From Corallococcus macrosporus DSM 14697 (lineage in GTDB: Bacteria > Myxococcota > Myxococcia > Myxococcales > Myxococcaceae), in assembly GCF_002305895.1 (NCBI RefSeq), contig NZ_CP022203.1, positions 6,234,001-6,298,000 on the forward strand: a stretch of 64,000 nt of DNA, in the 5' to 3' direction. The position numbers were made by a program, and so were the translations under genes. Positions 5,748 to 23,930 of this stretch are shown piece after piece. Numbering within the stretch: position 1 is the first letter of the stretch; every line of letters starts with the position of its first letter. The notes beneath the pieces are model-generated. The model had not been told where the DNA came from and made no database searches. It saw only the letters and a program-made list of their open reading frames with translations.

Positions 5748-6751
5748 TGGCCGTGGCGCTGGAGGCCGTCGACGCCCTGGGCGTGGCGCCGGTGTGCAAG
5801 GCCCTGGGCCTGCCGCGCGCCACCTTCTACCGGCAGGCCCAGCCCCGACACGGGCCGGTGCACAGGCCCAGCCCACCCAGGGCTCTCCCGCCGGAGCAAC
5901 GGGCCGAGGTGCTCTCGGTGCTGCACGAGCCGAGATTCGTGGATGCCGCGCCCGCGGAAGTCTACGCGCAGCTCCTCGATGAGGGCCGCTACCTGTGCTC
6001 GGAGCGCACCATGTACCGGGTGCTCGCTGAGAATCAGCAGGTGCGCGAGCGCCGCGACCAGCTGCGCCACCCCAACCACCCGGCGCCCCAGTTGCACGCG
6101 ACGAAGCCCAATGAACTCTGGAGCTGGGACATAACGAAGCTGCACGGCCCGTCGAAGTGGACGTACTTCTACCTCTACGTCGTCCTGGACGTCTTCAGCC
6201 GCTACGTCGTCGGGTGGATGGTGGCCCACCGCGAGTCGGCCACCCTGGCCAAGAAGCTGTTGGCGGCAACCTGCGAGCGCCAGGGCGTGGCGCCCGGCCA
6301 GTTGACGATTCACGCCGACCGAGGCTCCTCCATGACGTCCAAGCCGGTGGCCTTGCTGATGGCCGACCTGGGTGTGACGAAGACGCACTCGCGGCCCTAC
6401 GTCTCCAACGACAACCCCTTCAGCGAGGCCCACTTCAAGACGATGAAGTACCAGCCCGACTTTCCCGAAGGCTTCGGCTGCCTCCAGGACGCTCGCGGCC
6501 ACTGCGGTGACTTCTTCGGCTGGTACAACAACGAGCACCACCACGGTGGCCTCGGCCTGCTGACGCCCTATGACGTGCACCACGGCCTGGCTGCCGAGCG
6601 TCTCGCGGCCCGGCGCGCGGTGCTCGCCGCGGCCTACGCCGCTCACCCCGAGCGCTTCCCTCGCGGTGCACCCACGCCGAAGGCCCCGCCCACCATCGTC
6701 TGGATAAACGACCCCGCTCGGCGCTCCTCCTCACTGGAGGCTGCTCAGTAA
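5747..6751 (+). CDS. IS3-family transposase OrfB (DDE integrase-core)
   Basis: A 334-residue rve-type integrase core. The acidic triad is seen as WSWDITKLHG, HADRGSSMTSKPV and NDNPFSEAHFKTMKYQP, with the D-D-35-E spacing and the trailing Lys expected of the family. The HTH_21-like N-terminal region includes YAQLLDEGRYLCSERTMYRVL. The frame is -1 relative to orfA and is open across the A-run upstream, so an OrfAB fusion by frameshift is likely as in other IS3 members; translation from its own ATG, which overlaps the orfA stop, would give OrfB alone. It appears intact. Confidence 0.92.
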   Translation: MAVALEAVDALGVAPVCKALGLPRATFYRQAQPRHGPVHRPSPPRALPPEQRAEVLSVLHEPRFVDAAPAEVYAQLLDEGRYLCSERTMYRVLAENQQVRERRDQLRHPNHPAPQLHATKPNELWSWDITKLHGPSKWTYFYLYVVLDVFSRYVVGWMVAHRESATLAKKLLAATCERQGVAPGQLTIHADRGSSMTSKPVALLMADLGVTKTHSRPYVSNDNPFSEAHFKTMKYQPDFPEGFGCLQDARGHCGDFFGWYNNEHHHGGLGLLTPYDVHHGLAAERLAARRAVLAAAYAAHPERFPRGAPTPKAPPTIVWINDPARRSSSLEAAQ

Positions 6752-6874
6752 TTTCTCGAACTCACTGTCTCACTTGCGTTGACAGGTTCCGCGGGCCGCG
6801 AGCGCTCGGGGCCCCTCCGCCACCGCACCGAGTGGGAGCGCGCCGAACAGCTGCCGCGCCCCAAGCTGCCGCGC

Positions 6875-7237
6875 TCACCTGGCCATCGAGCGCCAGCCGC
6901 GGGCGGCGTCCCCCAGGCGCGTCCAGTCGCTCGTCCGCCGTCGCACCTCGTCCGCCCTCAGGCCGCACAGGGTCCACAGCGCCAGCGCGAAGGCAATCGC
7001 CTCCCCGCTGAAGTGCTTACGTGGAGAGACGGACGGCGGCACCACGCGCATCACCGCGCCACAGGGATGGCAGCGGTAGCGGCGACAGAGCACCTCCCGG
7101 CATTCCGGCGCCCCGTCCGGAGTCGGCGGGTTGCGCTGCTGGCGCTCGACGAGCCCATGCCCATGGAGGCCCAGCCCACCGCCTTCGTAGGCCCCGCGCC
7201 CACACGCCACGCAGCGCTTCGGCCGGCCCTCGTCCAC
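6875..7237 (-). pseudogene. Truncated zinc-ribbon protein (DUF6431-like, probably transposon-derived)
   Basis: The frame reads MDEGRPKRCVACGRG..., then RYRCHPCGAVMRVVP, giving two CxxC pairs that would form a zinc ribbon, followed by a hydrophobic helix (GEAIAFALALWTLCGL) and ADEVRRRTSDW. Proteins like this (I recall DUF6431) are common in myxobacterial mobile-element debris and normally continue into a helix-turn-helix segment. Here the frame stops soon after GWRSMAR, about 90 bases from the IS3 element, so the C-terminal part is missing. The same frame stays open upstream of the GTG at 7237 (VVRFEGDVKNWPPS), so the true start is uncertain. The family assignment is from memory. Confidence 0.5.
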
Positions 7238-7633
7238 CGAGGGCGGCCAGTTCTTGACGTCGCCCTCGAAACGGACGACTCCTCGGGTGTCCCGGTTCTC
7301 TTTCCGCAGGGTTCCCGGGGCCCGCGTGGAGGGTGTTCCCGCACCCTCTGCGCACCTTTCTCCCCGTCCTCCTGACCGCCTGCTACCTCATCGGGCGTGG
7401 CGCTCCAGTTTCTCGCTGACGATGGGCGAGCGGCGTGACCCCATCACGCAGCCGGCTCGAACTCGGGCCGCGAGCCCTCATCCAGGGTGCTCGTCAACAG
7501 GATCCGAGCGCATTGAGGCGTACGACCACCACAACTGAGTCATGGGTTGTCAGAAGAGGGAATGAGCGGCGGAGGCCTAGGCGGGCAGGCCCTAGTTGCA
7601 TCGGCCGAGACCCGCCCCACTCATGAAGCAGGG
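7238..7633. other. Non-coding or decayed stretch between two element remnants
   Basis: No convincing gene is seen. The left part is the upstream extension of the zinc-ribbon frame. From about 7577 the sequence resembles the stretch near 23045 and belongs to the leader of an IS701-like remnant. GC-rich throughout; no promoter or hairpin stands out. Confidence 0.5.
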
Positions 7634-7801
7634 ATGGACTGCTTCATGAACGCCGCTGCGGTGCAGCCACTTGAAAGATGCTTTCAGCAAATCGGCGAGG
7701 AGGGCCAGCGAAGAGCGTTCGCCCTCAACGCGCTGGGCCTGATGGGAAGGAAGCGCGCAAAATCATGGAGCCCACCGCAACCCAGGCAAGTCCAGACCTA
7801 A
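7634..7801 (+). pseudogene. Remnant of an IS701-type transposase N-terminus, frameshifted
   Basis: The frame starts MDCFMNAAAVQPLERCFQQIGEE and continues RAFALNALGLMG, matching the start of IS4/IS701-type transposases (the RLERYxxxIGEVLG ... YALGLL pattern, from family knowledge). After GLMG the homology shifts to the next frame (KEARKIMEPTATQA, matching a typical RKSMEPIAARA), so a frameshift is present, and the catalytic part is absent. The adjoining leader (7577 onward) is a diverged copy of the sequence at 23045-23160. The remnant ends immediately before the SIR2-like gene. Confidence 0.6.
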
Positions 7802-9721
7802 AGCGGCTGAACTGAGCGCATTTGTGCAGAGGGAACGTCATGATGAAACCAGACTGGAGGTGGGTCGCGCCGCGACTCGCTTCGCTCTACCACCGAGGTC
7901 TTCTAGTCCCCTTCATCGGCGCGGGATTGTCACGCCCAGCGTGCCCAGGCTGGGGGGGGTTAATCACGCGACTGGAAGCCGCCGCAGCCACCGGCGCGGG
8001 CACCGGGGAAGACCCCCTTTCCCTCATCCGTCGCGCGAACAAGACGGTCCTCGCGCTCCGCCATCGCGGACAGGGCGCGCTCGAGAAAGCCGTCCGCGAG
8101 GCGCTCACCACGACTCCCGTGACGATCCCGGAGAGCGCCACATGCCTTGCGGACATCTGGTGGCCGCTAGTCATCACCACCAACTACGACAACCTCTATC
8201 CCTCCAGCGTTTCCTCAAGGTGGAAGATTCGACCGCTCGTGCTCGGACGATCCCCCATGCATTGCTTCCAGGTGGGCCGTGTCCTGCGTGAGCCCCTTGC
8301 CCCAGCGCTTTGGGCCATCCAGGGATATCTGGACACGCCGTGCGATGAACATTTCGATTTCCAAAACCAGTTGGCATCGGAGCTGGTCGTGGGCCACGAG
8401 GAGTACCGTCGGGTGACGCATCGGGAGCCGCATTTCCGGCGCGCCTTCGCAGAGATATACCGTAACAGGAGCCTGTTGTTCGTAGGCTCAGGGCTGCAGG
8501 ATCAGTATCTCCTCGATCTCTTCTCCGAGATCCGCGAGTTTTATGGTCCTAACGGTCACTTGCACTTCGCATTCGCCCCCGAGGGCGAATTGGACGTGGA
8601 CTTTCTCCTGCGCGAATTTCAGGTTGCCGTTGTCGAGTATTCAGTGCCCAGCAATAATCCGACGGACCACTCGAATCGCCATCGGCATCTGCGAGAACTC
8701 AAGCATGCCATCGATGTTGCTCCATCGCCCAGCCGCTGGGATTACCAAGTCGCCCGTCCATCCAGAGACAGCGTCGCATGTTTCTCGGTAGAGCACTGAG
8801 CCGTCCCCTCATTCGAATCAAATGAAGCCGAATGCCTCGCGGAAGACGGCCTGCTCGCGGATGAGTTCGGCGAATTTCTCCATGAGGGGGCGGAGCCACT
8901 CCTCTCGCATGTTGGCGAGGGCGCCGTAGTAGATGATGCCTTGCCGAAAGAGAGAGTACTCGCGCGTCTTACGGGTGTCGGCGCGGAACTTCCTGTCGAG
9001 CCCCGTCGCTTCGCCCGCAGCGCCGAGCAGCGTCAGCAGTGCCATGGCGAAGGCGGACAGCAGCAACAGTCTGTCGCGGCGCTCACAGGTGCCGATAGCG
9101 ATGGCGGACAGGCCCATGCCGAAGCGCAAGTCCTTGATGTCCCGGTGCGTCTCCTCGCAGGTGAAGCGACGTCCGTAGGCCTTCACCAACTCGGTGGCAG
9201 TGGCTTCCTTGCTGCTGGCCGCCAGAAACCAGGCCTCTTTCATTCCCTTCTGGTGCACGCAGACGACGGCACCCACGCCGAAACGGGCCTGGGTGACGCG
9301 CGCTCCGCGCAGCAACTTCGGACGGCCCGTCGGGGGCACCCACTCCTTCGCCTTGTGCACCTCCCCTCCGGCACTTTCGACGTGCACGACGCCACGAAAG
9401 CGAATGACGTAGCCGAAGCTGAGTCTGTCCAGCAATTCATACAGGGCGACGTCTCCGAATCCTCGGTCCGCGAGCACCGTCACCTCCACGTCGGAGGGCA
9501 GCACCTGGTGCAACCGCTCCAGCAACGCGTCCTCATGGGCATTGCGCTGCCCGGCCAACTCGCTCTTGGGCACCGTCTTCCACAGCAACGGCGTGGCGCG
9601 GCCGTGGCGGGTGACAAGCTGGATGGCGACCGTGGTGTGGTCGTCCGACTCGAAGTCCGTCCGTATCCGCTGCACGAGCCCCGTCTGGAGGGGATGAGCC
9701 GGAGCGCGCAAGGTGGCGCGC

Positions 9722-10057
9722 ATGGCGAATGCGGAGCTGTGGAAGAAGCGAGTGGAGGAGTGGCGCACCAGTGGGCTGAGCGCGGAGGAGTACTGCCGTG
9801 GGAAGGAGTTCACGCCCAGCCCGCTGTACCGGTGGTCGAGTCGGCTGGCGAAGGCGGGGCGTGGAGAAGCGGAGGCGGCGGTGCCGCTGGTGAGGCTGGT
9901 TACTTCCCCGGCCCGCGAGGAAGCCGCACCTGGTGCAGGACTCGTCGTCATTGAGGCGCACGGGGCGCGGGTGCTGGTGCCCGCGGGGGCGGACGTGGCG
10001 ACGGTAGGCGTGGCGCTGGCGGCGCTGGGTACGGCGAGCCGGGGCGGGCCGCGATGA
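9722..10057 (+). CDS. tnpA: IS66 accessory protein TnpA (helix-turn-helix)
   Basis: A 111-residue protein from the ATG at 9722 (AAGG lies 8 bases upstream; a GTG at 9713 is an alternative). The N-terminal segment KKRVEEWRTSGLSAEEYCRGKEF followed by LYRWSSRL is the helix-turn-helix seen in IS66 first-frame proteins. The C-terminal part is low-complexity (Ala/Gly/Val). Its stop overlaps the tnpB start by 4 bases (ATGA), implying coupled translation. Confidence 0.85.
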   Translation: MANAELWKKRVEEWRTSGLSAEEYCRGKEFTPSPLYRWSSRLAKAGRGEAEAAVPLVRLVTSPAREEAAPGAGLVVIEAHGARVLVPAGADVATVGVALAALGTASRGGPR

Positions 10058-10395
10058 TTCCGCACGGCGTCGAAATCTTCCTGGGCCTGGAGCCGATTGA
10101 CTTGCGCTGGGGCTTCGAGCGGCTGTCTGGGTTGGTGGAGGAGAGGCTGGGACGCAAGCCTCGCAGCGGCGCCCTCTTCGTCTTCTTCGGCAAGCGGCGC
10201 ACGGCGCTGAAGGTACTCTTCTACGACGGCACGGGGCTGTGCCTCTTCTACAAGCGGCTGGACACCGGCTGCTTCCAGGTGCCGCGAGGGTTGGAGGAAG
10301 GCGCTACCAGCCTGGCGGTGGAGGAGCACGTGCTGGAGGAGTTGCTGGACGGGCTGCGCGTGGAGGCGCCCAGGCGGGGCCCTCGCCCACATTGA
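10054..10395 (+). CDS. tnpB: IS66 accessory protein TnpB (IS66 Orf2-like)
   Basis: A 113-residue protein with the family's opening MIPHGVEIFLGLEPIDLR and the conserved GALFVFFGKRRTALKVLFYDGTG segment. IS66 elements need this protein, but its biochemical role is not settled. It overlaps tnpA by 4 bases and is followed 35 bases later by tnpC. Confidence 0.92.
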   Translation: MIPHGVEIFLGLEPIDLRWGFERLSGLVEERLGRKPRSGALFVFFGKRRTALKVLFYDGTGLCLFYKRLDTGCFQVPRGLEEGATSLAVEEHVLEELLDGLRVEAPRRGPRPH

Positions 10396-10430
10396 GAGGA
10401 GCCAGGCGCACCACCGCGCGGGGGCACCAG

Positions 10431-12170
10431 GTGGGTGTCGACAGCGCGGTGGTGAGTGGTTACAAGGCCGCGGTGTCCACGCACGAGTCTCCCATTTCCG
10501 CGCAGGCGCGCATCGCCGAGCTCGAGGCGCTGTTGAGCGCCGAGAGGCAGCGCGCCGCGCAGTTGGAGAGGGAGCGGGACGTGCTGAAAGCCTCGCACGA
10601 GAGGCTGCGGCTGGAGTTGGAGTTACTCAAGCGCCGCCTCTTCATGGCCAAGGCGGAGCGGGTGGACACCCAGCAGTTGGAGTTGGAATTCGCCCAGAAG
10701 CTGCGCGCCCTGGAAGAGGTGGCCGGCACACTGGGCATGGCCTCGGCGGAGGCGTCAGGCGGCGCGGGGGCGAAGCAGAAGTCCAAGCCCAAGGGCCGGC
10801 GGGACTTGAAGAGTCTGCCGCTGGAAGAGAGGCGGGTGGTGATTGCGGACCCTCTCTTCGACGAGCTGGTGGCCCAGGGGAAGGCGGAGAAAATCGGCTT
10901 CGAGGAGAGCTGCAAGCTGGCCTGGCAGCGCGGCGGTATGCGGCGCCTCGTCATCGCCCGGGTGAAGTACCGCACGGTGGGGGCCGACGGGGAGGCCACG
11001 CTGGCCTCGGCCATGGCGCCCAAGGAAGTCTTCTTCCGCTGCCTGGCGGCGCCCTCGCTGCTGGCCCACCTGGCCACCGAGAAGTACTGCGACGGGCTGC
11101 CGTTGTTCCGCATGGAGAAGCGCCTGGCCCGCGACGGCGTGGCGGTGGACAGGGGGACGATGGCGCGGTGGCTGGAGGACATGGGCGCCACCCTGGGCAC
11201 CACCGTGGTGGCCGCCATGCGCGAGGAGGCGCTGGCCACCGCCTTCTGCATCGCCACCGACGCCACGGGCGTGGCGGTGCAGCCGGCCCCCGCCGAGGGG
11301 CCTCGCCAGGCGTGCCGACGCGGCCACTACTTCGTCCAGGTAGTCGACAGGGACGCCGTCTTCTTCGAGTACACGCCGAAGGAGACGAGCGCCGCGGTGC
11401 TGGAGCTCTTCAAGGGCTTCAAGGGCTACGTGCAGGCCGACGCCAAGAGCGTCTACAACGCCCTCTTCCGTCCCGCCGAGGACGCGCCCGCTGACGGCGA
11501 GGAGGGGGTGTGTCAGGAGGTGGCGTGCTGGGCGCACTGCCGCCGGGGCTTCTGGGAGGCGGCGACGGCCAAGGACGTCATCGCCAGGGAGGGGCTGGCG
11601 CGCATCAGTCGCCTCTTCCAGTTGGAAGCGACATGGAGGGACAAGCCCCCGGAGGAGATTCACCGGCTGAGGCATGCCCACCTGCGTGCGCACGTGGACG
11701 CCTTCTTCGTCTGGGCCCAGGAGGAGTACGAGAAGGTGCGGGAGCAGCGCGGCCTCTTGCGCCGGGCCCTCGGCTACGCCGTGCGCCAGCGCGAGGCGCT
11801 GCGCTGCTTCCTCGACGACGGACGGCTGCTGCTTGAGAACAACCGCTCCGAGAGAGAATTGAGAAGGATTGCCGTCGGACGCAAGGCCTGGCTCTTCGTC
11901 GGGAGCGATGACCATGCCGAGCGCGCCGGCCACCTCTTCACCCTCATCGCCACCGCGCGACTGCACGGACTCGAGCCCGAGACCTACCTGCGCGACATCC
12001 TGCGCGTGCTGGCCCACTGGCCCCACCAGCGCTACCTCGAGCTCGCTCCCAAGTACTGGGCCGCTACGCGCGCTCGCCTCCTCCCCTCCGAACTCGACGC
12101 CGAGGTGGGCGAACTCACCGTCCCGGCGCCGGTTGCGGCCTCGCCCGAAGAGCAGTCGTCGCCGCGCTGA
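10431..12170 (+). CDS. tnpC: IS66-family transposase TnpC
   Basis: A 579-residue protein from the GTG at 10431; the frame is open further upstream but overlaps tnpB there, and GTG at 10452 is another candidate. Residues about 20-90 form a coiled coil (ARIAELEALLSAERQ...). The DDE core is visible as ATDATGVAV, YVQADAKSVYN and LLENNRSERELRRI, and the C-terminal IS66 segment (YLRDILRVLAHWP) closes the protein. No CxxC zinc-binding motif is apparent in the linker. It appears intact. Confidence 0.92.
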   Translation: MGVDSAVVSGYKAAVSTHESPISAQARIAELEALLSAERQRAAQLERERDVLKASHERLRLELELLKRRLFMAKAERVDTQQLELEFAQKLRALEEVAGTLGMASAEASGGAGAKQKSKPKGRRDLKSLPLEERRVVIADPLFDELVAQGKAEKIGFEESCKLAWQRGGMRRLVIARVKYRTVGADGEATLASAMAPKEVFFRCLAAPSLLAHLATEKYCDGLPLFRMEKRLARDGVAVDRGTMARWLEDMGATLGTTVVAAMREEALATAFCIATDATGVAVQPAPAEGPRQACRRGHYFVQVVDRDAVFFEYTPKETSAAVLELFKGFKGYVQADAKSVYNALFRPAEDAPADGEEGVCQEVACWAHCRRGFWEAATAKDVIAREGLARISRLFQLEATWRDKPPEEIHRLRHAHLRAHVDAFFVWAQEEYEKVREQRGLLRRALGYAVRQREALRCFLDDGRLLLENNRSERELRRIAVGRKAWLFVGSDDHAERAGHLFTLIATARLHGLEPETYLRDILRVLAHWPHQRYLELAPKYWAATRARLLPSELDAEVGELTVPAPVAASPEEQSSPR

Positions 12171-12865
12171 AAGCGTCCCATTCACGCCGCCAGCATGCGG
12201 CGTCCGTCCGGCCTACGGAAGACGGGGCTCGTGCAGCGCATACGTCCGTCCAGTCAATGGTGACTGTCACCGCTTTGCGCTCGGCCACCACGAAGGGCAC
12301 CCACTGCGCGAACAGTCGCCACACGTCGACGCCAGAGTTGGACAGCAGTCGGTCCACCTGCTTGATGGCGTGCTTGCCTTCCAACCCCCGCGCCTGGGAG
12401 AGCGCCAGTCCGATGGCCCTCACCGAGAGGCTGGCGGCGTGCACGGCGCCCAAGGTGGCATTGGACAGCGACAGCACACGCTTGGCATGGGTGTCCGGGC
12501 CGACGGCTTCCTCAATGAACCGATGCACCTCGGCGTGCGTTATGGATTTCGACATGCTCCGCACGATGCAGGACAACCTCTGGCGCCGAAAAGCGCGCGC
12601 CTCACTGCCGCTTCCCGCGCTGCTCCGGCACCAGCCAACCGCTGGGGACGGCCCTTGACGCTCGGCTCAAATGAGGGGACGACTCAGGGTAGAGCAGTCA
12701 CCCCTGCCCAATAGTCTGGAGGCACGGGGCTGCTTGGCGGTGAGCGCTGGTGGTGAGTTGAGTCACGGGCTCCTGTATCTCAGCCCTACCATCCAGGCAC
12801 TCGTTGCCAGCTACGCGCCCGATGGCACCTACAGAAGGTTGCCGGGGCGGCATGTAGCCCGCTAC

Positions 12866-14307
12866 CATCCGCGTCCGTTTAACGCGGTGAGGAAAAGCAG
12901 AGCAGAATCAGAGAGATAGGTGCAGCCGAGCAGGCAGGGCCCGTCGAAACGGAGGGACGAGGACCATTCTCCCGGCATGAAGAATACTCCGAGAGCGAAG
13001 GTGGCTGAGGGACTCCGGGCACTGGTGTCGGCCGAGGACATTCTGGAGGCGGCGCGGCGGTTGGGTGCGTTGCAGCGCCAGCGCAAGGTGGACCTGGTGG
13101 CGCTGGTGGAGTCCACCGTGGCCGCGGTGACGCCGCTGCCCGGCACGCAGACAACGGCCTTCGCCAACTACATCGCGCTCACCGGACAGAAGCTGTCACC
13201 CAGCGCCTTCTTCGAGCGCTTCAACCACGCCTTTGGGCTGTTGATGTGTGAGGTGGCCGGCCGGGCCGTGCAGGCCGTGCGCGAGGCCATCGGCGAGGAC
13301 AAGCCCTTCAATGAACTGGGAGCCTTGCTGGAAGAATTCTCAGACGTGCAGGTGGCCGACTCCACCTGCCAACTGCTGCGGCGACTGGCGGCTGACTGGG
13401 CCCCCTCCACCAGCCAGGCACGGCCAGCGTCCTTCAAATGGCACGCGCTGGTATCGCTGCGAGACGAGTTGCCGGTGGCGGACGGAGTGACGCCCCAGCG
13501 CACCCAGGACACGCGCGCATTGCCCGAAGAGGCGCTGGCGCCCGGCACGCTCACCTTCATGGACTTGGGGTACACAGACACCGGCCGCTTCCTTGATGCG
13601 ATTGAGGCCGGAGCCCATTTCCTGGTGCGGCTGAAGGCCCAGCATGACCCGAAGGTGCTGCGGGTGCACGTGGGCAAGGGCGAGCGCGTGCGGGCCCGGG
13701 GCATGCGCCTGACGGATGCGCTACTGCAGGGCGTGCTGCGTGAGGAGGGCGGCGTCATCGACGTGGACGTGCAACTGGAGAAGCAGGGGCGCACGGCCTC
13801 GGCGCGGGTGGTGGCCGTGCAAGGGCCAGAGGGTGAGCGGCGCTGGTATCTGACGACGGTAGGCCGCGACGTGTTGACAGCCCTGGAGGTGGCCGAGGCC
13901 TACCGTCTGCGCTGGAGGGTGGAACTTCTCTTCAAAGCCCTCAAATCCGGTGTGGGACTGACGGCGCTGCGCGCCACGCGGCCTGGCGCGGTGCTCTCGT
14001 TGGTGTACGCCAAGGTGATTGCCCTGGCCCTCTCGCGCCTGCTGGAACTGTCGATGCAGCAGAAGGCAGGCGAGTCGGGTCAGCAGCATGCGACGGGGCG
14101 GCTCGCGCTGGTGCTGGCGTTGACCCGCTGCGCCCCACTGCTGCTGTCGCATGCGATGATGAGCCGGGGCGTAACCCTGGAGCAATTGGAGGAGCGCATC
14201 CTCCTCATCGCGGAGGTGACCGCTCGTTCACGCCAGCAGCGCCGCGAGCGTGAACGACGCAAGCGGGAGGCTTCCCTCGGGAGCGGCCGCTAAACCGGAA
14301 GCGGATG
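12866..14307 (+). mobile_element. IS4-type insertion sequence B
   Basis: A 1442-bp element that begins CATCCGCGTCCGTTTAACGC and ends in GCGGATG; the right end read inward is CATCCGCTTCCGGTTTAGC. The 10-base target duplication AGCCCGCTAC is at 12856-12865 and 14308-14317, inside the SIR2 gene. It is a different element from IS4-type A: the termini and transposase are unrelated at sequence level. Confidence 0.9.
12977..14293 (+). CDS. IS4-family transposase of element B
   Basis: A 438-residue protein from the ATG at 12977; the open frame extends to a GTG at 12920 but the upstream part lacks features. The acidic residues are in VQVADSTC and FMDLGYTDTGRF, and the IS4 signature Y-x2-R-x3-E-x6-K is complete in YRLRWRVELLFKALK. 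The C-terminus is strongly basic (QQRRERERRKREA). It appears intact, so this copy may be mobile. Confidence 0.92.
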   Translation: MKNTPRAKVAEGLRALVSAEDILEAARRLGALQRQRKVDLVALVESTVAAVTPLPGTQTTAFANYIALTGQKLSPSAFFERFNHAFGLLMCEVAGRAVQAVREAIGEDKPFNELGALLEEFSDVQVADSTCQLLRRLAADWAPSTSQARPASFKWHALVSLRDELPVADGVTPQRTQDTRALPEEALAPGTLTFMDLGYTDTGRFLDAIEAGAHFLVRLKAQHDPKVLRVHVGKGERVRARGMRLTDALLQGVLREEGGVIDVDVQLEKQGRTASARVVAVQGPEGERRWYLTTVGRDVLTALEVAEAYRLRWRVELLFKALKSGVGLTALRATRPGAVLSLVYAKVIALALSRLLELSMQQKAGESGQQHATGRLALVLALTRCAPLLLSHAMMSRGVTLEQLEERILLIAEVTARSRQQRRERERRKREASLGSGR

Positions 14308-15378
14308 AGCCCGCTACAGCGGCCGTCCCATCTTCGCCGTCGTTGCGCGGGAAGGAAGACCTTCCGCCAGGAAACTCGCGATTGATGGGGAGCGCACCCT
14401 GGCAGCGGTGTACTGGGCGACGCGGGAACTCTTGGTTCACGTACAGCAAGCCGGATTCACCACATTGCATGCCCAGTTGTTCGCCAGCGGCCCGGACTTG
14501 CATGGCAACGATGCGCTACCGCCCTTCCGACCAGTTCACGCACTGGCCGAAATGGCCAGCGCATTTGGCGACTCTGTGCGCGCCACAAGGTCGGCAGGCG
14601 ACCTCCGCATGGTAGTTCATGTAGTAGACCCAAGCGTCTATGCCGAGTTGCGCAGGGGACGCTTCTACCTGCCCGAGTTCCTAGGCTGCGAGGACTTGCG
14701 CATCTGGGTTTCCATTGAGATGGAGGGTGGACCGCCTAGTTACCACCACCTCCATATCCCGGCGTTTGAGTTCTCGGGATCCCATCCCTCCACGACGGGG
14801 TCGCCCGTCCGCATCAAGGACGTTGCTCAGCTGTTCCACGGTCGTGTCCCTATAAGTGTGTAGATGGTGATGAGGGACGAGCGGGAAAGAGGGAAGCTCC
14901 TCGGTGAAACCAACCGAGACGGTCTCCCCCTGGCAGGGGAGCCGAGGAGTTCCCTGACGTGGACGATACCGAGTTCGAATCCCCCGCGCACGAAGAGGTG
15001 CAGGCCGACCTGCGGGCGCTGTTTCGAGGCGCCATTCGGATGACGCTGGAGGCGCTGCTGGAGGAAGAGGTCCGGGAGTTGGTGGGGGCTGGCCGGTGGC
15101 AGCGGATGGTGGGCCGGGCGGACGTGCGCAACGGCAGCTACCTGCGCACGTTGGTGACGACGGCGGGGGCCGTGGACGTGGCGGTGCCGCGCACCCGGCA
15201 CAGCGGCAGCGCGGGGGACGTGCTGGGCTGTCGTAGCTCGGCGTAACAGGTCCTCCGGAGTTCGGCGAACCCGGTCGGGGTGAGTTCGGCCAAACCGGTC
15301 CGCACCGGTTCGGCCAAACCGGTCCCCCGGGCCTCGTGCCGACAGGCCACGCTGGCTTCCCAAGGAAAGGGAAGTGGC

Positions 15379-16968
15379 GTGAGTAACCGGAGAGTGGAGA
15401 TGGACCGGCTGCAGGAATTGGTGCGGTTGCACCGCCTGGGCACACCCGCGCGGCAAGTGGCCCGGGTGCTGCGAATGGGCGTGGACGTGGAGCGCAACTA
15501 CCGCCGCGTGCTGGAGGCGGCGGGGCTGCTGCGGGGCGATGTGCAGGTGCTGCCCGAACTCGAGGTGCTCAAGGCCGCGGTGCTGGTGGCGCGGCCCGCG
15601 GCCCCGCCAGCGCCTCAGCAGACGTCCAGCCTGGAGGCGCACCGAGCCCAAGTGGAATCGTGGGTGGCCAAAGGCCTGCAGCCGCAGGCCATCTTCACCC
15701 GGCTGCAGATGGAGGCAGGGGTGCCGGTAGGCAGCCTCTCGGCCGTCAAACGCCTGGTGGGCAGCGTGCGTCGGGCGCAGGGCGTGAGTGAAGAGGACGT
15801 CGCCATCCCCGTGGAGACGGCCCCGGGCGAGGTGGCGCAGGTGGACTTCGGTGAAGTGGGCCGGCTGTACGACGCGGACACGGGGACGCTGCGGCGCGCC
15901 TGGGTGTTCGTCATGGTGCTCGGCTACAGCCGCCACCTCTTCGCCACGCTGGTGTTCGACCAGCGCGTGGAGACGTGGCTGCGCTGCCACGAGGCCGCCT
16001 TCGCGTACTTCGGCGGGGTGCCCCGCTGCGTGGTGCCCGACAACCTCAAGGCGGCGGTGGTACGCGCGGCCTTCGGGGTGGACGGGGAGAGGGCCCTGCA
16101 ACGCAGCTACCGCGCGCTGGCGCGTCACTACGGCTTCATCGTCGACCCGGCCCCACCTCGCGCCCCCGAGAAGAAGGGCAAGGTGGAGGCGGGCGTGCGC
16201 TATGTGAAGGGCAACTTCTTCGCCGGGCGGGCCGGGGAGGACGCGCGCGAGTGCGAGGCCGCCCTGCAGCGCTGGCTGCGGGACGTGGCGTCGGTGCGCG
16301 TGCACGGCACGACGGGGCGCCAGCCGCGCCTCCTCTTCCAGCAGGCCGAGGCCGCGGCGCTGCGTGCGCTGCCGGCGGCCGCGTGGGCGCCCGAGGTGTG
16401 GCACGAGGCCCGCGTGCACAGAGACGCCCACGTCATGTACGGCCGACGGCTGTACTCGGTGCCCTGGCGCCTCATCGGCCAGCGCGTCTGGCTGTGCGTC
16501 ACCGCCCACGACGTGCGCGTGTACGCCCAGGACGAGCGCGTGGCCACCCACCCGCTGCGCGGCGAGGGCCACCGCAGCACCGTGGAGGCCCACCTGCCCG
16601 AGGCGCGCGCGGCCCTGCGCCACCGCAGTCGCGGCCACTGGGAGGCGCGGGCGGCCCGGCTGGGCCCTCACACCGAGGCGTACGTGCGCGCCGTCTTCGA
16701 CGCCGATGACGTCCTCAGCCAGCTGCGCTGCGTGCAGGCCATGGTGGTGCACCTGGAGGGCTTCCCGCGAGAGCGGGCCGATGCCGCGTGCCGCCGGGCG
16801 CTGCACTTCGGCAACCTGCGCTACCAGGGCCTCAAGGACATCCTGCGCCGAGGCCTGGACTTGCAGCCGTTGCCCCAGGACGGGCACCTGGCCATCGCCA
16901 CGCCCGCCGCCACTGCTGCGCCGCCGGCTCCCCGCTACGCGCGCGACGTGCGCACGCTGCTGCGTTAG
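15379..16968 (+). CDS. istA: IS21-family transposase IstA
   Basis: A 529-residue protein from the GTG at 15379, chosen because AAGGAAAGGGAAG precedes it; the frame opens at 15280 within the terminal repeats. It has an N-terminal helix-turn-helix (RLHRLGTPARQVARVLRMG) and an integrase-type DDE core: AQVDFGEVG, CVVPDNLKAAVV and GKVEAGVRYVKGNFF. The C-terminal region matches the length of the family. It is intact, and istB starts 53 bases downstream. Confidence 0.93.
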   Translation: MSNRRVEMDRLQELVRLHRLGTPARQVARVLRMGVDVERNYRRVLEAAGLLRGDVQVLPELEVLKAAVLVARPAAPPAPQQTSSLEAHRAQVESWVAKGLQPQAIFTRLQMEAGVPVGSLSAVKRLVGSVRRAQGVSEEDVAIPVETAPGEVAQVDFGEVGRLYDADTGTLRRAWVFVMVLGYSRHLFATLVFDQRVETWLRCHEAAFAYFGGVPRCVVPDNLKAAVVRAAFGVDGERALQRSYRALARHYGFIVDPAPPRAPEKKGKVEAGVRYVKGNFFAGRAGEDARECEAALQRWLRDVASVRVHGTTGRQPRLLFQQAEAAALRALPAAAWAPEVWHEARVHRDAHVMYGRRLYSVPWRLIGQRVWLCVTAHDVRVYAQDERVATHPLRGEGHRSTVEAHLPEARAALRHRSRGHWEARAARLGPHTEAYVRAVFDADDVLSQLRCVQAMVVHLEGFPRERADAACRRALHFGNLRYQGLKDILRRGLDLQPLPQDGHLAIATPAATAAPPAPRYARDVRTLLR

Positions 16969-17200
16969 CGCCCCCCTCGCTGTCCCCGCAGTCCCACCCC
17001 GCTCAAGGAGTGTCCCCCCGCATGAGTACCTATGACGAGCTCGTCCCCGTGCTGAAGAAGCTGCGCCTGTCCGGGCTGCTGCAGTCCCTCGAGGTGCGCT
17101 GCCGGGAGGCGGCCGACGCCAACTTGTGTATGCGCTGCACGAGCCCCGTCTTCCGTAGGCCGGACGGACGCCGCATGCTGGCGGCGTGAATGGGACGCTT

Positions 17201-18940
17201 TCAGCGCGGCGACGACTGCTCTTCGGGCGAGGCCGCAACCGGCGCCGGGACGGTGAGTTCGCCCACCTCGGCGTCGAGTTCGGAGGGGAGGAGGCGAGCG
17301 CGCGTAGCGGCCCAGTACTTGGGAGCGAGCTCGAGGTAGCGCTGGTGGGGCCAGTGGGCCAGCACGCGCAGGATGTCGCGCAGGTAGGTCTCGGGCTCGA
17401 GTCCGTGCAGTCGCGCGGTGGCGATGAGGGTGAAGAGGTGGCCGGCGCGCTCGGCATGGTCATCGCTCCCGACGAAGAGCCAGGCCTTGCGTCCGACGGC
17501 AATCCTTCTCAATTCTCTCTCGGAGCGGTTGTTCTCAAGCAGCAGCCGTCCGTCGTCGAGGAAGCAGCGCAGCGCCTCGCGCTGGCGCACGGCGTAGCCG
17601 AGGGCCCGGCGCAAGAGGCCGCGCTGCTCCCGCACCTTCTCGTACTCCTCCTGGGCCCAGACGAAGAAGGCGTCCACGTGCGCACGCAGGTGGGCATGCC
17701 TCAGCCGGTGAATCTCCTCCGGGGGCTTGTCCCTCCATGTCGCTTCCAACTGGAAGAGGCGACTGATGCGCGCCAGCCCCTCCCTGGCGATGACGTCCTT
17801 GGCCGTCGCCGCCTCCCAGAAGCCCCGGCGGCAGTGCGCCCAGCACGCCACCTCCTGACACACCCCCTCCTCGCCGTCAGCGGGCGCGTCCTCGGCGGGA
17901 CGGAAGAGGGCGTTGTAGACGCTCTTGGCGTCGGCCTGCACGTAGCCCTTGAAACCCTTGAAGAGCTCCAGCACCGCGGCGCTCGTCTCCTTCGGCGTGT
18001 ACTCGAAGAAGACGGCGTCCCTGTCGACTACCTGGACGAAGTAGTGGCCGCGTCGGCACGCCTGACGCGGCCCCTCGGTGGGGGCCGGCTGCACCGCCAC
18101 GCCCGTGGCGTCGGTGGCGATGCAGAAGGCGGTGGCCAGGGCCTCCTCGCGCATGGCGGCCACCACTGTGGTGCCCAGGGTGGCGCCCATGTCCTCCAGC
18201 CACCGCGCCATCGTCCCCCTGTCCACCGCCACGCCGTCGCGGGCCAGGCGCTTCTCCATGCGGAACAACGGCAGCCCGTCGCAGTACTTCTCGGTGGCCA
18301 GGTGGGCCAGCAGCGAGGGCGCCGCCAGGCAGCGGAAGAAGACTTCCTTGGGCGCCATGGCCGAGGCCAGCGTGGCCTCCCCGTCGGCCCCCACCGTGCG
18401 GTACTTCACCCGGGCGATGACGAGGCGCCGCATACCGCCGCGCTGCCAGGCCAGCTTGCAGCTCTCCTCGAAGCCGATTTTCTCCGCCTTCCCCTGGGCC
18501 ACCAGCTCGTCGAAGAGAGGGTCCGCAATCACCACCCGCCTCTCTTCCAGCGGCAGACTCTTCAAGTCCCGCCGGCCCTTGGGCTTGGACTTCTGCTTCG
18601 CCCCCGCGCCGCCTGACGCCTCCGCCGAGGCCATGCCCAGTGTGCCGGCCACCTCTTCCAGGGCGCGCAGCTTCTGGGCGAATTCCAACTCCAACTGCTG
18701 GGTGTCCACCCGCTCCGCCTTGGCCATGAAGAGGCGGCGCTTGAGTAACTCCAACTCCAGCCGCAGCCTCTCGTGCGAGGCTTTCAGCACGTCCCGCTCC
18801 CTCTCCAACTGCGCGGCGCGCTGCCTCTCGGCGCTCAACAGCGCCTCGAGCTCGGCGATGCGCGCCTGCGCGGAAATGGGAGACTCGTGCGTGGACACCG
18901 CGGCCTTGTAACCACTCACCACCGCGCTGTCGACACCCAC
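17201..18940 (-). CDS. tnpC: IS66-family transposase TnpC, copy B
   Basis: The same 579-residue transposase as in copy A, with the DDE segments ATDATGVAV, YVQADAKSVYN and ENNRSERELRRI intact. At least one substitution (Ala to Thr in the VQPAP.EG loop) separates the two copies. The start (GTG at 18940) is set by correspondence with copy A. Confidence 0.92.
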   Translation of the reverse strand: MGVDSAVVSGYKAAVSTHESPISAQARIAELEALLSAERQRAAQLERERDVLKASHERLRLELELLKRRLFMAKAERVDTQQLELEFAQKLRALEEVAGTLGMASAEASGGAGAKQKSKPKGRRDLKSLPLEERRVVIADPLFDELVAQGKAEKIGFEESCKLAWQRGGMRRLVIARVKYRTVGADGEATLASAMAPKEVFFRCLAAPSLLAHLATEKYCDGLPLFRMEKRLARDGVAVDRGTMARWLEDMGATLGTTVVAAMREEALATAFCIATDATGVAVQPAPTEGPRQACRRGHYFVQVVDRDAVFFEYTPKETSAAVLELFKGFKGYVQADAKSVYNALFRPAEDAPADGEEGVCQEVACWAHCRRGFWEAATAKDVIAREGLARISRLFQLEATWRDKPPEEIHRLRHAHLRAHVDAFFVWAQEEYEKVREQRGLLRRALGYAVRQREALRCFLDDGRLLLENNRSERELRRIAVGRKAWLFVGSDDHAERAGHLFTLIATARLHGLEPETYLRDILRVLAHWPHQRYLELAPKYWAATRARLLPSELDAEVGELTVPAPVAASPEEQSSPR

Positions 18941-18975
18941 CTGGTGCCCCCGCGCGGTGGTGCGCCTGGCTCCTC

Positions 18976-19317
18976 TCAATGTGGGCGAGGGCCGCGCCTG
19001 GGCGCCTCCACGCGCAGCCCGTCCAGCAACTCCTCCAGCACGTGCTCCTCCACCGCCAGGCTGGTAGCGCCTTCCTCCAACCCTCGCGGCACCTGGAAGC
19101 AGCCGGTGTCCAGCCGCTTGTAGAAGAGGCACAGCCCCGTGCCGTCGTAGAAGAGTACCTTCAGCGCCGTGCGCCGCTTGCCGAAGAAGACGAAGAGGGC
19201 GCCGCTGCGAGGCTTGCGTCCCAGCCTCTCCTCCACCAACCCAGACAGCCGCTCGAAGCCCCAGCGCAAGTCAATCGGCTCCAGGCCCAGGAAGATTTCG
19301 ACGCCGTGCGGAATCAT
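18976..19317 (-). CDS. tnpB: IS66 accessory protein TnpB, copy B
   Basis: Identical 113-residue product to copy A (MIPHGVEIFLGLEPIDLR...). It overlaps the upstream tnpA copy by 4 bases, preserving the coupled arrangement. Confidence 0.92.
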   Translation of the reverse strand: MIPHGVEIFLGLEPIDLRWGFERLSGLVEERLGRKPRSGALFVFFGKRRTALKVLFYDGTGLCLFYKRLDTGCFQVPRGLEEGATSLAVEEHVLEELLDGLRVEAPRRGPRPH

Positions 19318-19649
19318 CGCGGCCCGCCCCGGCTCGCCGTACCCAGCGCCGCCAGCGCCACGCCTACCGTCGCCACGTCCGCCCCCGCGGGCACCAGCAC
19401 CCGCGCCCCGTGCGCCTCAATGACGACGAGTCCTGCACCAGGTGCGGCTTCCTCGCGGGCCGGGGAAGTAACCAGCCTCACCAGCGGCACCGCCGCCTCC
19501 GCTTCTCCACGCCCCGCCTTCGCCAGCCGACTCGACCACCGGTACAGCGGGCTGGGCGTGAACTCCTTCCCACGGCAGTACTCCTCCGCGCTCAGCCCAC
19601 TGGTGCGCCACTCCTCCACTCGCTTCTTCCACAGCTCCGCATTCGCCAT
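19314..19649 (-). CDS. tnpA: IS66 accessory protein TnpA, copy B
   Basis: The same 111-residue helix-turn-helix protein as in copy A, with no difference seen in the translated product. First gene of the element, with its start near the right inverted repeat. Confidence 0.85.
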   Translation of the reverse strand: MANAELWKKRVEEWRTSGLSAEEYCRGKEFTPSPLYRWSSRLAKAGRGEAEAAVPLVRLVTSPAREEAAPGAGLVVIEAHGARVLVPAGADVATVGVALAALGTASRGGPR

Positions 19650-21721
19650 GCGCGCCACCTTGCGCGCTCCGGCTCATCCCCTCCAGACGGGGCTCGTGCA
19701 GCGGATACCAACTTGTCGCTGACGGAATTCCTCTACCGACTGCTGGCCGACGAGGTGGAGCGGCGCGACGGCAAGCAGTTGGACGTGCGCCTGCGCCGTG
19801 CCGCCTTCGAGCGGCCCAGCACCCTGGAGGACTTCGACTTCTCCTTCAACACCTCCGTCCCGCGCGCCAAGGTGCTGGAGTTGGGCACCTGCACCTTTGT
19901 CGAGCGGCACGAGAACGTGCTCGTGGTGGGCCCGGCGGGCGTCGGCAAGAGTCACCTCGCCCAGGCGCTGGGACAGCGAGCTTGCCGCGCCGGCCACGCC
20001 GTCCTCTACGTGAGCGCCCACGACATGCTCACGCAGTTGCGCGCCTCACGCGCCGACAACAGCTACGAGCGGCGCCTCCTGCGCTTCACCACGCCAGCCC
20101 TGCTCATCATCGACGACCTCGGACTGCGGCCCCTCACGGGTGAGGAGGGTGTCGACCTGTACGAGATTATCCGTCGTCGCTACGAGCGTGCGGCCACTTG
20201 CATCACCTCCAATCGCGCCCTGGAGGAGTGGCCTCCGCTGTTTGGTGACGCACTGCTGGCCAGCGCCGCCATGGACCGACTGCTGCACCACTCCCATGTC
20301 CTCACCATCGAGGGTGACAGCTACCGCAACCCACCGCTCGCCAAGCGCACCCGAGCACCGCGCGCGGCCCACGCTGACACCGCCGCACGCTGACACCTGG
20401 CGGAGCCCCTGCCGGACCGGTTTGGCCGAACCCGCGCGGCCCACTCCGTCGCGATTCCTGGGCGCTTCACGTCCGGACCTGATTGGCCGAACCGAACAGC
20501 GACCTGATTGGCCGAGCCTTGACACTGGGCCGCTACAAGCGGCGCACTGGGGAACTCGACGAGGCGATTACCAGCGCCTACGTGCAGGGCGTCTCCACGA
20601 GGAAAATGGGCAAGGTGACGCGTGCCCTCATGGGGGAGGCCGTCTCGCGCTCGACGGTGAGCCGGGTGACGAGGACGCTGGAGGAGAAGGTGGAGGCGCT
20701 GCGTACCCAGCCCCTTACCCAAGCCATCCCCTACCTGTACCTGGATGCCACCTTCCTCGACGCCAGGTGGGCGCGCACGGTGCAGAACGTCTCCGCCCTG
20801 GTAGCCTACGGTGTGGGCGAGGATGGGCACCGGCACCTGCTGGCGGTGACGCTGGGTGGCAGCGAGTCGGCGGACTCCTGGCTGGACTTGCTGCGCCAGT
20901 TGCTAGAGCGAGGGCTGCGAGGCGTGCGGCTCGTCATCGCCGACGGACACGCGGGACTGGCCGCCGCGGCCCGCCAGGCCCTGCCGGAGGCGCGGCTGCA
21001 GCGCTGCACCGTGCACCTCACCCGGAACGTGCTCGCCAAGGCGCCCTGGAGGCTGCGTGGGCGCCTGGGCAAGGAGACGTCGGCCGTCTTCGAGGCCCCC
21101 AGCCTTGAGGACGCCAGGAAGCGGCTGGAGGCCCTTGAAGAGGGGCTGGGACGCCACCTGCCAGAGGCCATGGAGTGCCTGCGCGAGGGCTTCGCCGCCG
21201 CCACCTGCTTCTTCGCCTTCCCCAAGGCCCACTGGAAGCGCCTACGCAGCACCAACGGCCTGGAGCGCCTCCACGGCGAGGTGAAGCGCCGCATCCGCGG
21301 CGTCGGTGCCTTCCCGGACCGCGCCAGCGCCCTGCGCCTCATCATCGCCGTCGCACTTGAAGTCACCGGCGTTTGGGATGACCGCCGATACCTCGACATG
21401 TCCCTGCTGAAATCAACCCCTGACACCGCCGCTGCATGATGCCGCCGAGGAGCCTTCCTCCCCCGAACCCCCTCCGAACCAACTACACAGGATTCGGGAC
21501 TTGACCCTGTTCCACATCCCCGAGGGCTGGACAGTAGACGTCTGGCCATCGCCGCGGCTGGGCTGGTCACCGGGGCCGCTCAAGACCCTAGGAAATACAG
21601 AGGTGGTCTTCGCGGCCGTGGCCGGAAGCACAGTGCGCTTCATGGCGCCTGGAACTCCTCGCAATTGAGAAGTGCACGGCGCCGTGTCACACCTTGACTA
21701 ACTCAACTGCGTCAGAGGTAA

Positions 21722-23014
21722 GGGCCTGTCGGGATATTAGTTAGCCGAATAGGGGAATGGTCGAGCAACCGAGCATGTTGGCCGGGCATGGACGCGGAAA
21801 AGGCCGTGGCGGAGCGCTACCAGGCACTCCGGGACGTCATGGATGAGCGGGTGACGCGCCGCTGGGCAGGCGCCGAGGCGCTCGCGCTGGGACGAGGCGG
21901 CGTCACAGCGGTCGCCCGGGCGACGGGACTGGCGCGCATGACGGTGCGCGCGGGGCGCGACGAGGTGAGCGGGAAGAGGCCTGAAGGAGCGCTGGTGCGG
22001 GTGCGGCGCAAGGGCGCTGGGCGCCCGCCAGTGGAGGTGGCCCAGCCGGGGCTGACCGAAACCCTGGAGTCGCTGGTGGACCCGGTGACTCGGGGCGACC
22101 CGGAGTCGCCGCTGCGCTGGACGTGCAAGAGCACGAGGATGCTGGCTGCGGCGTTGGAGAAGCACGGCTACAAAGTGAGCCCCCAGAAGGTGGGCGAGTT
22201 GCTCAAGAGCCAGGGCTACAGCTTGCAGGCAATCTCCAAGTCGTTGGAGGGAGAGTCGCACCCGGACCGCAACGCCCAGTTCGAGCACATCAACGCTCAG
22301 GTGCAGGAGTTCCAGGCTCGGGGACAGCCCGCCGTTTCGGTGGACACGAAGAAGAAGGAGTTGGTGGGGGAGTTCAAGAATGGAGGCCGTGAATGGCAGC
22401 CGGCGGGGGCGCCGGTGCTGAGCCTGACGCATGACTTCCCAGACACAGCGGTGGGCAAGGCGATTCCCTACGGTGTGTACGACATCGGGGACAACAGCGC
22501 CTGGGTGTCGGTGGGGGTGGACCACGACACGCCCGTCTTCGCCGTCAACAGCCTCGGCGCGTGGTGGCGCAAAATGGGCCATGCGCGCTACCCCGAGGCG
22601 AAGGAACTCCTGGTGACGGCGGACTCGGGCGGCAGCAACAGCGCGCGAATCCGGGTCTGGAAGGCCGAGCTGCAGCGGCTGGCGGACGCGACGGGGCTTT
22701 GCATCAGCGTCTGTCATTTCCCGCCCGGTACGAGCAAGTGGAACAAGGTGGAGCATCGCCTCTTCAGCCACATCAGTCTGAATTGGAGAGGCCGCCCCCT
22801 GGAGGACTACGAGACGGTGGTGAACCTCATCGGCACCACGACCAACACCAAGGGCTTGAAGGTGAAAGCACGGCTGGACCGACGGCGCTACCGCACAGGA
22901 GTCAGCGTCTCTCCGGAGGCCATGCACGAACTCCACCTCGTCCGCGCTACCTTCCATGGTGACTGGAACTACGTCCTCAAGCCCCGAATGGATAATTAAT
23001 TTCTGATCAGGCCC
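21722..23014 (+). mobile_element. ISAzo13-type insertion sequence
   Basis: Bounded by imperfect inverted repeats: GGGCCTGTCGGGATATTAGT on the left and GGGCCTGATCAGAAATTAAT read inward from the right. About 1293 bp with one transposase gene. I did not find a clear target duplication, and the outer base at each end is uncertain. It lies 53 bases after the end of the SIR2 gene. Confidence 0.75.
21788..22999 (+). CDS. ISAzo13-family transposase
   Basis: A 403-residue protein starting MDAEKAVAERYQALRDVMDERV. It has an N-terminal helix-turn-helix (GGVTAVARATGLARMTVRAG), then KSTRMLAAALEKHGYKVSP, and a DDE core: VSVDTKKKELVGEFKNGG, LLVTADSGGSNSARIR and SKWNKVEHRLFSHIS. These segments are characteristic of ISAzo13-type transposases. 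It ends MDN, 15 bases from the right end of the element. It appears intact. Confidence 0.9.
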   Translation: MDAEKAVAERYQALRDVMDERVTRRWAGAEALALGRGGVTAVARATGLARMTVRAGRDEVSGKRPEGALVRVRRKGAGRPPVEVAQPGLTETLESLVDPVTRGDPESPLRWTCKSTRMLAAALEKHGYKVSPQKVGELLKSQGYSLQAISKSLEGESHPDRNAQFEHINAQVQEFQARGQPAVSVDTKKKELVGEFKNGGREWQPAGAPVLSLTHDFPDTAVGKAIPYGVYDIGDNSAWVSVGVDHDTPVFAVNSLGAWWRKMGHARYPEAKELLVTADSGGSNSARIRVWKAELQRLADATGLCISVCHFPPGTSKWNKVEHRLFSHISLNWRGRPLEDYETVVNLIGTTTNTKGLKVKARLDRRRYRTGVSVSPEAMHELHLVRATFHGDWNYVLKPRMDN

Positions 23015-23101
23015 CAAGTCGCAGGTGAAGCGTGCGACAGAGAACTGGGCGGGCGGGCCTTGGTTGCATCGGCCGCTACCCGCCCCACTCATAAAGCAGG
23101 G

Positions 23102-23190
23102 ATGGACTCCTTTATGAACGCCGCCGCGGTACAGCGGATTGAGAGGTGTTCCCAGTAAATCGGTGAGGTACTGGGCGAGGGGGCTTCTAT
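23102..23190 (+). pseudogene. Second remnant of the IS701-type transposase N-terminus
   Basis: Reads MDSFMNAAAVQRIERCSQ, then an in-frame TAA, then IGEVLGE. It is the same start as the remnant at 7634 (MDCFMNAAAVQPLERCFQQIGEE), and the leaders match too (GTTGCATCGGCC ... CCCGCCCCACTCAT). The stop codon and absence of the remaining transposase mark it as a decayed fragment. Nothing further is recognisable to about 23398. Confidence 0.6.
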
Positions 23191-23398
23191 CACCGCGCCA
23201 CGATCTGCGTGGTTGATCGCCGCCTCCTCGCGCTCCGTACAGCACTTCCACCGGAGAAGGAGGCAGTGGCTACTGGCTGAAGCGCGGCGTCTCCATCAAC
23301 AGCTACTTTGCGCCGCATCGGTCCCTGTCCACTCTGCCGACGCCGCGTAGGCTCCCAAGATCGGCCTCTGGGAACTTCGCGAAGTTGTGCAAGTAACA

Positions 23399-23815
23399 TC
23401 AGGAGTCGTAAAAACACCCCTTACACAAGCCATGACAGCGGGCACGCTTCCGCCAAGCAGCGGAGACTAGAAGGTACACGTACTGCGGTCCGCCCTCGCT
23501 GTAGCTCCCACCGCCACCATTCCGAGTGTTGTGCAGTCGGCTTCGTGCCCACTTTGACCACAAATGCTCGACGAGAATAGACTCCACTCGTTTGGCAGAT
23601 ACCACGCTAGCTGTCCGATAAAGAACTATCATTTCCTCCCAGCCCGCAGACTTATGACTCCTCCAGCGGGTCTCCGGCATGGATGTAAATCCCACTTTGA
23701 GATGATAATTGTATCGTGCATGTTGCCCTACAACACGTCGAAGTGCATTCAATGCCCCTACAGCGTGCCCAGTAACCGCCCGATATGTGGGCAATGACTT
23801 TTGATAGTCAAGCAT
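23399..23815 (-). CDS. GIY-YIG-like small protein
   Basis: A 138-residue protein from the ATG at 23815, with AGGGGG 7 bases upstream. The segment YNYHLKVGFTSMPETRWRSHKSAGW followed by SAKRVESILVEHLW resembles the second half of GIY-YIG nuclease-type domains (a K-V/I-G-x-T turn, an Arg/His pair, then a helix with the catalytic Glu), and NGGGGSY...YVYLLVS resembles the closing strand of such proteins. The tail has three Cys (RCHGLCKGCFYD). The DNA is AT-richer than the conserved genes, so it is probably acquired. The function is unknown; the fold assignment is tentative. Confidence 0.5.
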   Translation of the reverse strand: MLDYQKSLPTYRAVTGHAVGALNALRRVVGQHARYNYHLKVGFTSMPETRWRSHKSAGWEEMIVLYRTASVVSAKRVESILVEHLWSKWARSRLHNTRNGGGGSYSEGGPQYVYLLVSAAWRKRARCHGLCKGCFYDS

Positions 23816-23930
23816 TGCAGTCCCCCTCGCGCACTGCGTAGAGACTATCACACTTTCGGCCCCAATGCATTGAGCCGGGCCATAAGAACTCTATGTTTTA
23901 GCCGCCATCAGCGCCCCAGCACCGAGGCTG

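What the first reader, a model, noticed from the sequence alone, without database searches (positions are those of the whole stretch)
7840..21668. A 599-residue SIR2-like gene rebuilt exactly from four pieces across 13.8 kb
The gene is cut by three separate insertions with duplications GGTAGAGCA (9), AGCCCGCTAC (10) and CTGTTCCAC (9). Removing each element plus one repeat copy joins 956+169+522+153 = 1800 nt with no stop and no frameshift. The pieces lie up to 6.7 kb apart and each on its own would be annotated as an unrelated fragment. The lack of decay in the pieces means the inactivation is recent. The C-terminal 280 residues are an unassigned domain combination.
Basis: partly seen in the sequence, partly recalled or inferred. 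Interest (0 to 1): 0.9.

Follow-up and report, generated by a model that had tools for sequence, protein, structure and literature searches.

The report
SIR2-like gene shattered by nested transposons
In this bacterial chromosome (probably Myxococcus) a gene that probably once helped fight viruses has been cut into four pieces by three jumping DNA elements, two of which carry further jumping elements inside them, and an intact copy in a related bacterium shows that the pieces fit back together exactly.

Summary
Four pieces (956+169+522+153 nt) join to a 599-codon gene without a stop or frameshift. The inserts are IS4, IS4 and IS256 elements. The first holds an IS66; the IS256 holds an IS21 that holds another IS66. 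That makes six insertions, each with an exact target duplication, and removing the inner elements restores the outer transposases. Additions: (1) Full-length homologues occur in only 7 of 195 Myxococcota genomes, in varying neighbourhoods. (2) All 7 have Gln where all 38 other aligned SIR2_2 proteins have the catalytic His. (3) The C-terminal ~280 residues match no Pfam or NCBIfam model. (4) The gene lies in a 21-kb species-specific island directly after nrdB. The same site holds a Hachiman system in one sister species and a SIR2/ParA-type pair in another. (5) A second defence-like gene in the island (TIR/DRHyd-like, 259 aa) is also broken in frame, by an ISKra4-like element. Best reading: a recently dismantled defence island. 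IS inactivation is an ordinary process; the Gln-type SIR2 family with an unassigned C-terminus is the unusual part.

The parts
7840..8795 (+). SIR2-like gene, piece 1 (residues 1-318 and two bases of codon 319), holding the whole SIR2_2 match; in the present DNA this frame ends as a 319-aa ORF (...SVEH*)
   Evidence: intact orthologue
8796..12687 (-). insert 1: IS4-family element (1303 bp without its own insert), flanked by GGTAGAGCA at 8787-8795 and 12688-12696
   Evidence: NCBIfam IS4_2 3.8e-67; seven near-identical copies in the genome
9663..12243 (+). IS66 element (2581 bp) inside insert 1, duplication GTCCGTCC 9655-9662 / 12244-12251; removal restores the IS4 transposase frame
12697..12865 (+). 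SIR2-like gene, piece 2 (rest of codon 319 to residue 375)
12866..14307 (+). insert 2: second IS4-family element (1442 bp), flanked by AGCCCGCTAC at 12856-12865 and 14308-14317
   Evidence: NCBIfam IS4_1 1.9e-47; four identical copies in the genome
14318..14839 (+). SIR2-like gene, piece 3 (residues 376-549)
14840..21506 (+). insert 3: IS256-family element (1365 bp without its inserts), flanked by CTGTTCCAC at 14831-14839 and 21507-21515
   Evidence: NCBIfam IS256 8.2e-99; only near-intact copy of its kind in the genome
15229..20524 (+). IS21 element inside the IS256 (2707 bp without its insert), duplication CTGGGC 15223-15228 / 20525-20530; removal restores the IS256 transposase frame
17128..19708 (-). 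second IS66 copy (2581 bp, 7 mismatches to the first) inside the IS21 istB gene, duplication CAACTTGT 17120-17127 / 19709-19716; removal restores istB
21516..21668 (+). SIR2-like gene, piece 4 (residues 550-599 and stop)
2875..3567 (+). second broken gene: TIR/DRHyd-like 259-aa protein, piece 1 (GC 51.5% over the joined gene)
   Evidence: (PADLOC TIR effector 3.6e-7)
3568..5121 (-). 1554-bp element with a 481-aa transposase that reads like ISKra4, duplication GGGAATCT 3560-3567 / 5122-5129, ends 16/20 inverted
   Evidence: family name by sequence motif from own knowledge, no profile match run
5130..5216 (+). second broken gene, piece 2 (last 28 residues and stop, in frame with piece 1)
2785..23930 (.). 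species-specific island: homology to sister genomes stops just after nrdB (stop at 2779) and resumes near 23930

Best explanation
The locus is an accessory island, acquired at a variable site directly after nrdB, that once carried at least two intact defence-like genes: a stand-alone 599-aa SIR2-like protein and a TIR/DRHyd-like protein. Both have since been destroyed by active insertion sequences. Shown: the exact four-piece gene, its intact orthologue, the order of nesting (IS256 before IS21 before IS66; IS4 before its IS66), the hotspot, and the family-wide His-to-Gln change. Inferred: the intact protein was an antiphage protein whose SIR2-like domain binds NAD or a related nucleotide, with the C-terminal region as sensor or partner domain. 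Because the catalytic His is Gln in all members while Asn and Asp are kept, it either cleaves NAD by an altered mechanism or acts as a nucleotide-binding switch. In this strain it can no longer do either as a full protein. At most a 319-aa SIR2-only fragment could be made.
For: Joined frame and duplications. Uninterrupted 80% orthologue through all junctions. Six insertions, each with its own duplication, and restored transposase frames. Transposase families over curated cut-offs. Other full copies of the IS4, IS66 and IS21 elements 97-100% identical, showing recent activity. Island edges and variable nrdB-aquaporin interval, 2.0 to 26 kb, across the genus. The same site holds Hachiman HamA+HamB in G106 and a SIR2_2 plus AAA_31 pair in G116. 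A retron-type reverse transcriptase lies next to the G102 family member. Weak PADLOC matches to LmuA (3.4e-12) and ThsA. Patchy spread, 7 of 195 genomes. Second broken gene in the island. Gln in all 7, His in all 38 others.
Against: No functional data. The PADLOC similarity covers only the SIR2 domain. Family members have no conserved partner gene and some sit beside ordinary genes such as a P450. The hotspot also takes non-defence cargo. Loss of the catalytic His argues against a simple NADase.
Confidence: 0.72

Rival explanations
1. The first insertion left a working SIR2-only protein: the 319-aa ORF ends in the linker just past the SIR2 domain, so the strain may still make a shortened, possibly unregulated protein, and only the C-terminal part is a pseudogene.
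For: The insertion point (residue 319) falls between the SIR2_2 match (110-250) and the C-terminal region. Piece 1 shows the lowest dN/dS against the orthologue (0.17 v 0.28-0.34). The relative-rate count leans to more change on this lineage in pieces 2-4 (15 v 7) but not in piece 1 (10 v 12).
Against: The lean is not significant (p=0.13), and the SIR2 half is the better conserved half in the whole family anyway. No homologue ends there. No expression data.
Confidence: 0.15
2. The gene was never a defence gene. It is a myxobacterial nucleotide-binding pseudoenzyme with a housekeeping or developmental role that happens to travel between accessory sites.
For: Catalytic His replaced by Gln in every member. 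Family found only in one family of Myxococcota in the genomes searched. Some neighbourhoods without defence genes.
Against: Patchy presence with changing neighbourhoods, a defence-rich integration site, and the nearest named families all being defence SIR2 proteins.
Confidence: 0.22
3. Assembly artefact: repeats such as the two inverted IS66 copies led to a false joining of unrelated contigs.
For: Several elements are multicopy.
Against: The genome is one contig. Each of the six insertions has its own exact duplication, and the outer frames are restored. The four gene pieces come in order and match one orthologue.
Confidence: 0.02

Closest known systems
Thoeris ThsA (SIR2-STALD/SLOG)
   Same: N-terminal SIR2_2 domain followed by a second domain; weak PADLOC match over the SIR2 part (1.3e-6); a TIR-like gene lies in the same island
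   Different: Catalytic His is Gln; C-terminal region does not match STALD/SLOG; no ThsB next to the intact orthologue or relatives
Lamassu LmuA SIR2-type effector (PADLOC LmuA)
   Same: Best PADLOC match, 3.4e-12, over residues 179-285
   Different: No conserved neighbour gene of any kind seen; match limited to the SIR2 domain
FAM118B / KomC SIR2 proteins of known structure
   Same: Profile matches over SIR2 sub-domains (4.9e-8 and 0.0015)
   Different: FAM118B needs Asn163 and His206 for NAD processing (PMC12700824); this family keeps the Asn but has Gln for the His
Nested insertion-sequence pseudogenes of IS-rich bacteria
   Same: Stepwise insertion with target duplications, inner elements inserting into outer ones (own knowledge of the kind)
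   Different: Only in degree: six insertions in one gene, three deep, every junction still exact

Membership tests
IS-inactivated pseudogene | element ends with exact flanking target duplications | tested here: met
   9, 10, 9, 8, 8 and 6 bp duplications at six insertions
IS-inactivated pseudogene | uninterrupted homologue aligning across the insertion points | tested here: met
SIR2-like superfamily (Pfam SIR2_2) | profile match over curated cut-off | tested here: met
   58.1 bits v 24.5
Catalytic SIR2 NADase | conserved Asn in TTN(Y/F)D and catalytic His in xHG | tested here: not met
   Asn115/Asp117 kept; His replaced by Gln161 in all 7 members, while 38 of 38 other proteins have His
Thoeris ThsA | SIR2 plus STALD/SLOG domain | tested here: not met
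   C-terminal half gives no Pfam, NCBIfam or PDB sequence match; PADLOC match ends at residue 246-285. A fold comparison could not be made
Thoeris ThsA | adjacent ThsB (TIR) gene | tested here: not met
   no conserved neighbour in six genomes with an intact member; the TIR-like gene in this island is 4 kb away and has no match in the fetched neighbourhoods of the relatives
Antiphage defence gene | protects cells against phage | not testable with these tools
   only indirect context

The most novel reading that the evidence does not exclude
The intact relatives define an undescribed single-gene defence family in which a SIR2-like domain has swapped its catalytic His for Gln and is paired with an undescribed ~280-residue C-terminal domain. 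It would sense or bind NAD-derived signals, or cleave NAD by a changed mechanism. The window's strain would be a natural knockout whose defence island has been dismantled gene by gene by insertion sequences.
Probability: 0.35. Interest if true: 0.6.

Novelty: new variant of a known kind. Interest (0 to 1): 0.42.

Why it matters
It shows that gene-finders would list unrelated fragments where one gene existed, and it gives a case in which two defence-like genes of one island were lost to insertion sequences in an order that can be partly read. The Gln-for-His SIR2 family with an unassigned C-terminal domain is a concrete target for testing whether SIR2-like defence proteins can work without the catalytic histidine. 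The nrdB-aquaporin interval is a ready site to look for further myxobacterial defence genes.

Tried and rejected
Structure prediction of the orthologue gave mean pLDDT 38 and pTM 0.29 with only five rows, so no fold search was run and no fold is claimed for the C-terminal region; relatives from the whole-genome search were not handed to the predictor because its stated rule does not list them. A macro-like or SLOG-like look of residues 395-515 is an impression only; phmmer of a relative's C-terminal half against PDB chains found nothing up to E=10. A viral-contig scan, phage records and plasmid records gave no relative of the SIR2 protein. The direct repeat at 7566-7700 and 23034-23168 (81%) was considered as a boundary of a mobile unit. 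Its copies elsewhere in the genome share a start that reads like an IS701-type transposase N-terminus, so it was set aside as IS remnants (family name from own knowledge). An RNA reading of that repeat was rejected (z -1.5 and 0.0, no Rfam match above its gathering score). A tRNA attachment site was looked for and not found. Thoeris and Lamassu membership were considered and not accepted.

Full report
Observation. The first junction falls inside codon 319, so only an exact join keeps the frame. The decisive test is an intact relative. Corallococcus sp. CA053C carries an uninterrupted 599-aa gene, 80% identical over residues 1-599, with no gap at any junction. Five further homologues of about 650 aa, 28-31% identical, also run through the junctions; junction 2 lies inside one of the best conserved blocks.

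What the inserts are. Insert 1 is an IS4-family element with an IS66 inside; insert 2 is another IS4-family element; insert 3 is an IS256 holding an IS21 that holds a second IS66. Each of the six insertions has its own exact target duplication (9, 10, 9, 8, 8 and 6 bp). Removing the inner elements restores the transposases of the IS4 and IS256 elements and the istB gene of the IS21. All five elements pass NCBIfam's curated cut-offs. The nesting gives a partial order: the IS256 came before its IS21, which came before its IS66. Other copies in the same 8.97-Mb single-contig genome are identical or nearly so (IS4 insert 2: four identical copies; insert 1: seven near-identical; IS66: six full copies at 97-100%; IS21: two), so these elements moved recently. 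The IS256 has no other full-length near-identical copy; the best are a split match at 91-92% and a full-length match at 74%.

How recent. There is no stop or frameshift in 1800 nt. About 3.4-3.7% of random substitutions in this gene would make a stop, so none seen bounds the neutral change since inactivation to roughly 0.046 per site, against a synonymous distance of 0.51 to the orthologue. A relative-rate count with the distant homologues as outgroup shows no excess on this lineage (25 v 19, p=0.45; pieces 2-4 alone 15 v 7, p=0.13). 'Recent' is thus supported, with a bound but not a date. The count ignores selection on any remaining SIR2 fragment.

What the gene was. Only SIR2_2 is recognised (58.1 bits, residues 110-250), in the window gene and in all six intact relatives; the C-terminal 280 residues match no Pfam or NCBIfam model, and a relative's C-terminal half matches no PDB chain by phmmer. 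In the alignment, the Rossmann motif and the TTNYD Asn/Asp are kept, but the catalytic His of the xHG motif is Gln161 in all seven members. All 38 other SIR2_2 proteins that could be aligned, nearly all from the same order, have His. For FAM118B the equivalent His206 and Asn163 are both needed for NAD processing (PMC12700824). The change predates the inactivation, since the intact members share it. Full-length members were found in 7 of 195 Myxococcota genomes, all in one family, with changing neighbourhoods and no constant partner. No phage or plasmid record in the collections searched holds one.

Where it sits. Homology between the window and sister genomes stops just after nrdB and resumes near 23930. 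nrdB and an aquaporin gene occur in all 27 genomes of the genus searched; where both lie on one contig the interval varies from 2.0 to about 26 kb. It is therefore an integration hotspot. In G106 the same site holds a complete Hachiman pair (HamB 1292 bits, HamA 3.9e-114). In G116 it holds a canonical SIR2_2 protein (His present) in an overlapping pair with an AAA_31 ATPase. In G102 the family member, at another locus, lies next to a retron-type reverse transcriptase. Other cargo at the hotspot is not defence-related.

A second casualty. Within the same island, a 312-aa ORF at 2875 is really the start of a TIR/DRHyd-like gene (PADLOC TIR effector, 3.6e-7) cut after codon 231 by a 1554-bp element with an 8-bp duplication GGGAATCT. 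Joining 2875-3567 to 5130-5216 gives a 259-aa frame with its own stop. No relative covering that junction was found, so this join rests on the duplication, the inverted ends and the restored frame.

Mechanism and judgement. Best reading: an acquired defence island recently taken apart by active insertion sequences. Shown are the gene, the inserts, their nesting, the orthologue, the hotspot and the Gln change. The antiphage role and the nucleotide-binding role are inferred from context and domain. IS inactivation is an ordinary process, here unusually complete and exact. The SIR2 branch without catalytic His and with an unassigned C-terminus is the part a specialist would want to test.

Noticed in passing
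window 2875-3567 + 5130-5216: TIR/DRHyd-like 259-aa gene, GC 51.5%, interrupted by an ISKra4-like element with duplication GGGAATCT; the pieces join in frame.
   Followed up: yes
window 2785-23930; L072-L091, L122: nrdB-aquaporin interval is a genus-wide integration hotspot (2.0-26 kb) with Hachiman in G106 and a SIR2_2/AAA_31 pair in G116.
   Followed up: partly
L089 4459-4728 and 7989-8996 (G120): A second copy of the nrdB 3' end (last 92 residues) lies in the hotspot, as after site-specific integration into the nrdB end.
   Followed up: no
window 7566-7700 and 23034-23168: Direct repeat, 81% identical, with about ten copies in the genome; reads as left ends of an IS701-like element, the second copy itself split by an ISAzo13 at about 21727-23009.
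   Followed up: partly
L033 5789-6772: Retron-type reverse transcriptase (PADLOC RT_VIII 1.2e-92) directly downstream of the G102 member of the SIR2 family.
   Followed up: no
L080 2467-8496: RHS protein with SpvB/TcdB-type matches at the same hotspot in G110; named only.
   Followed up: no
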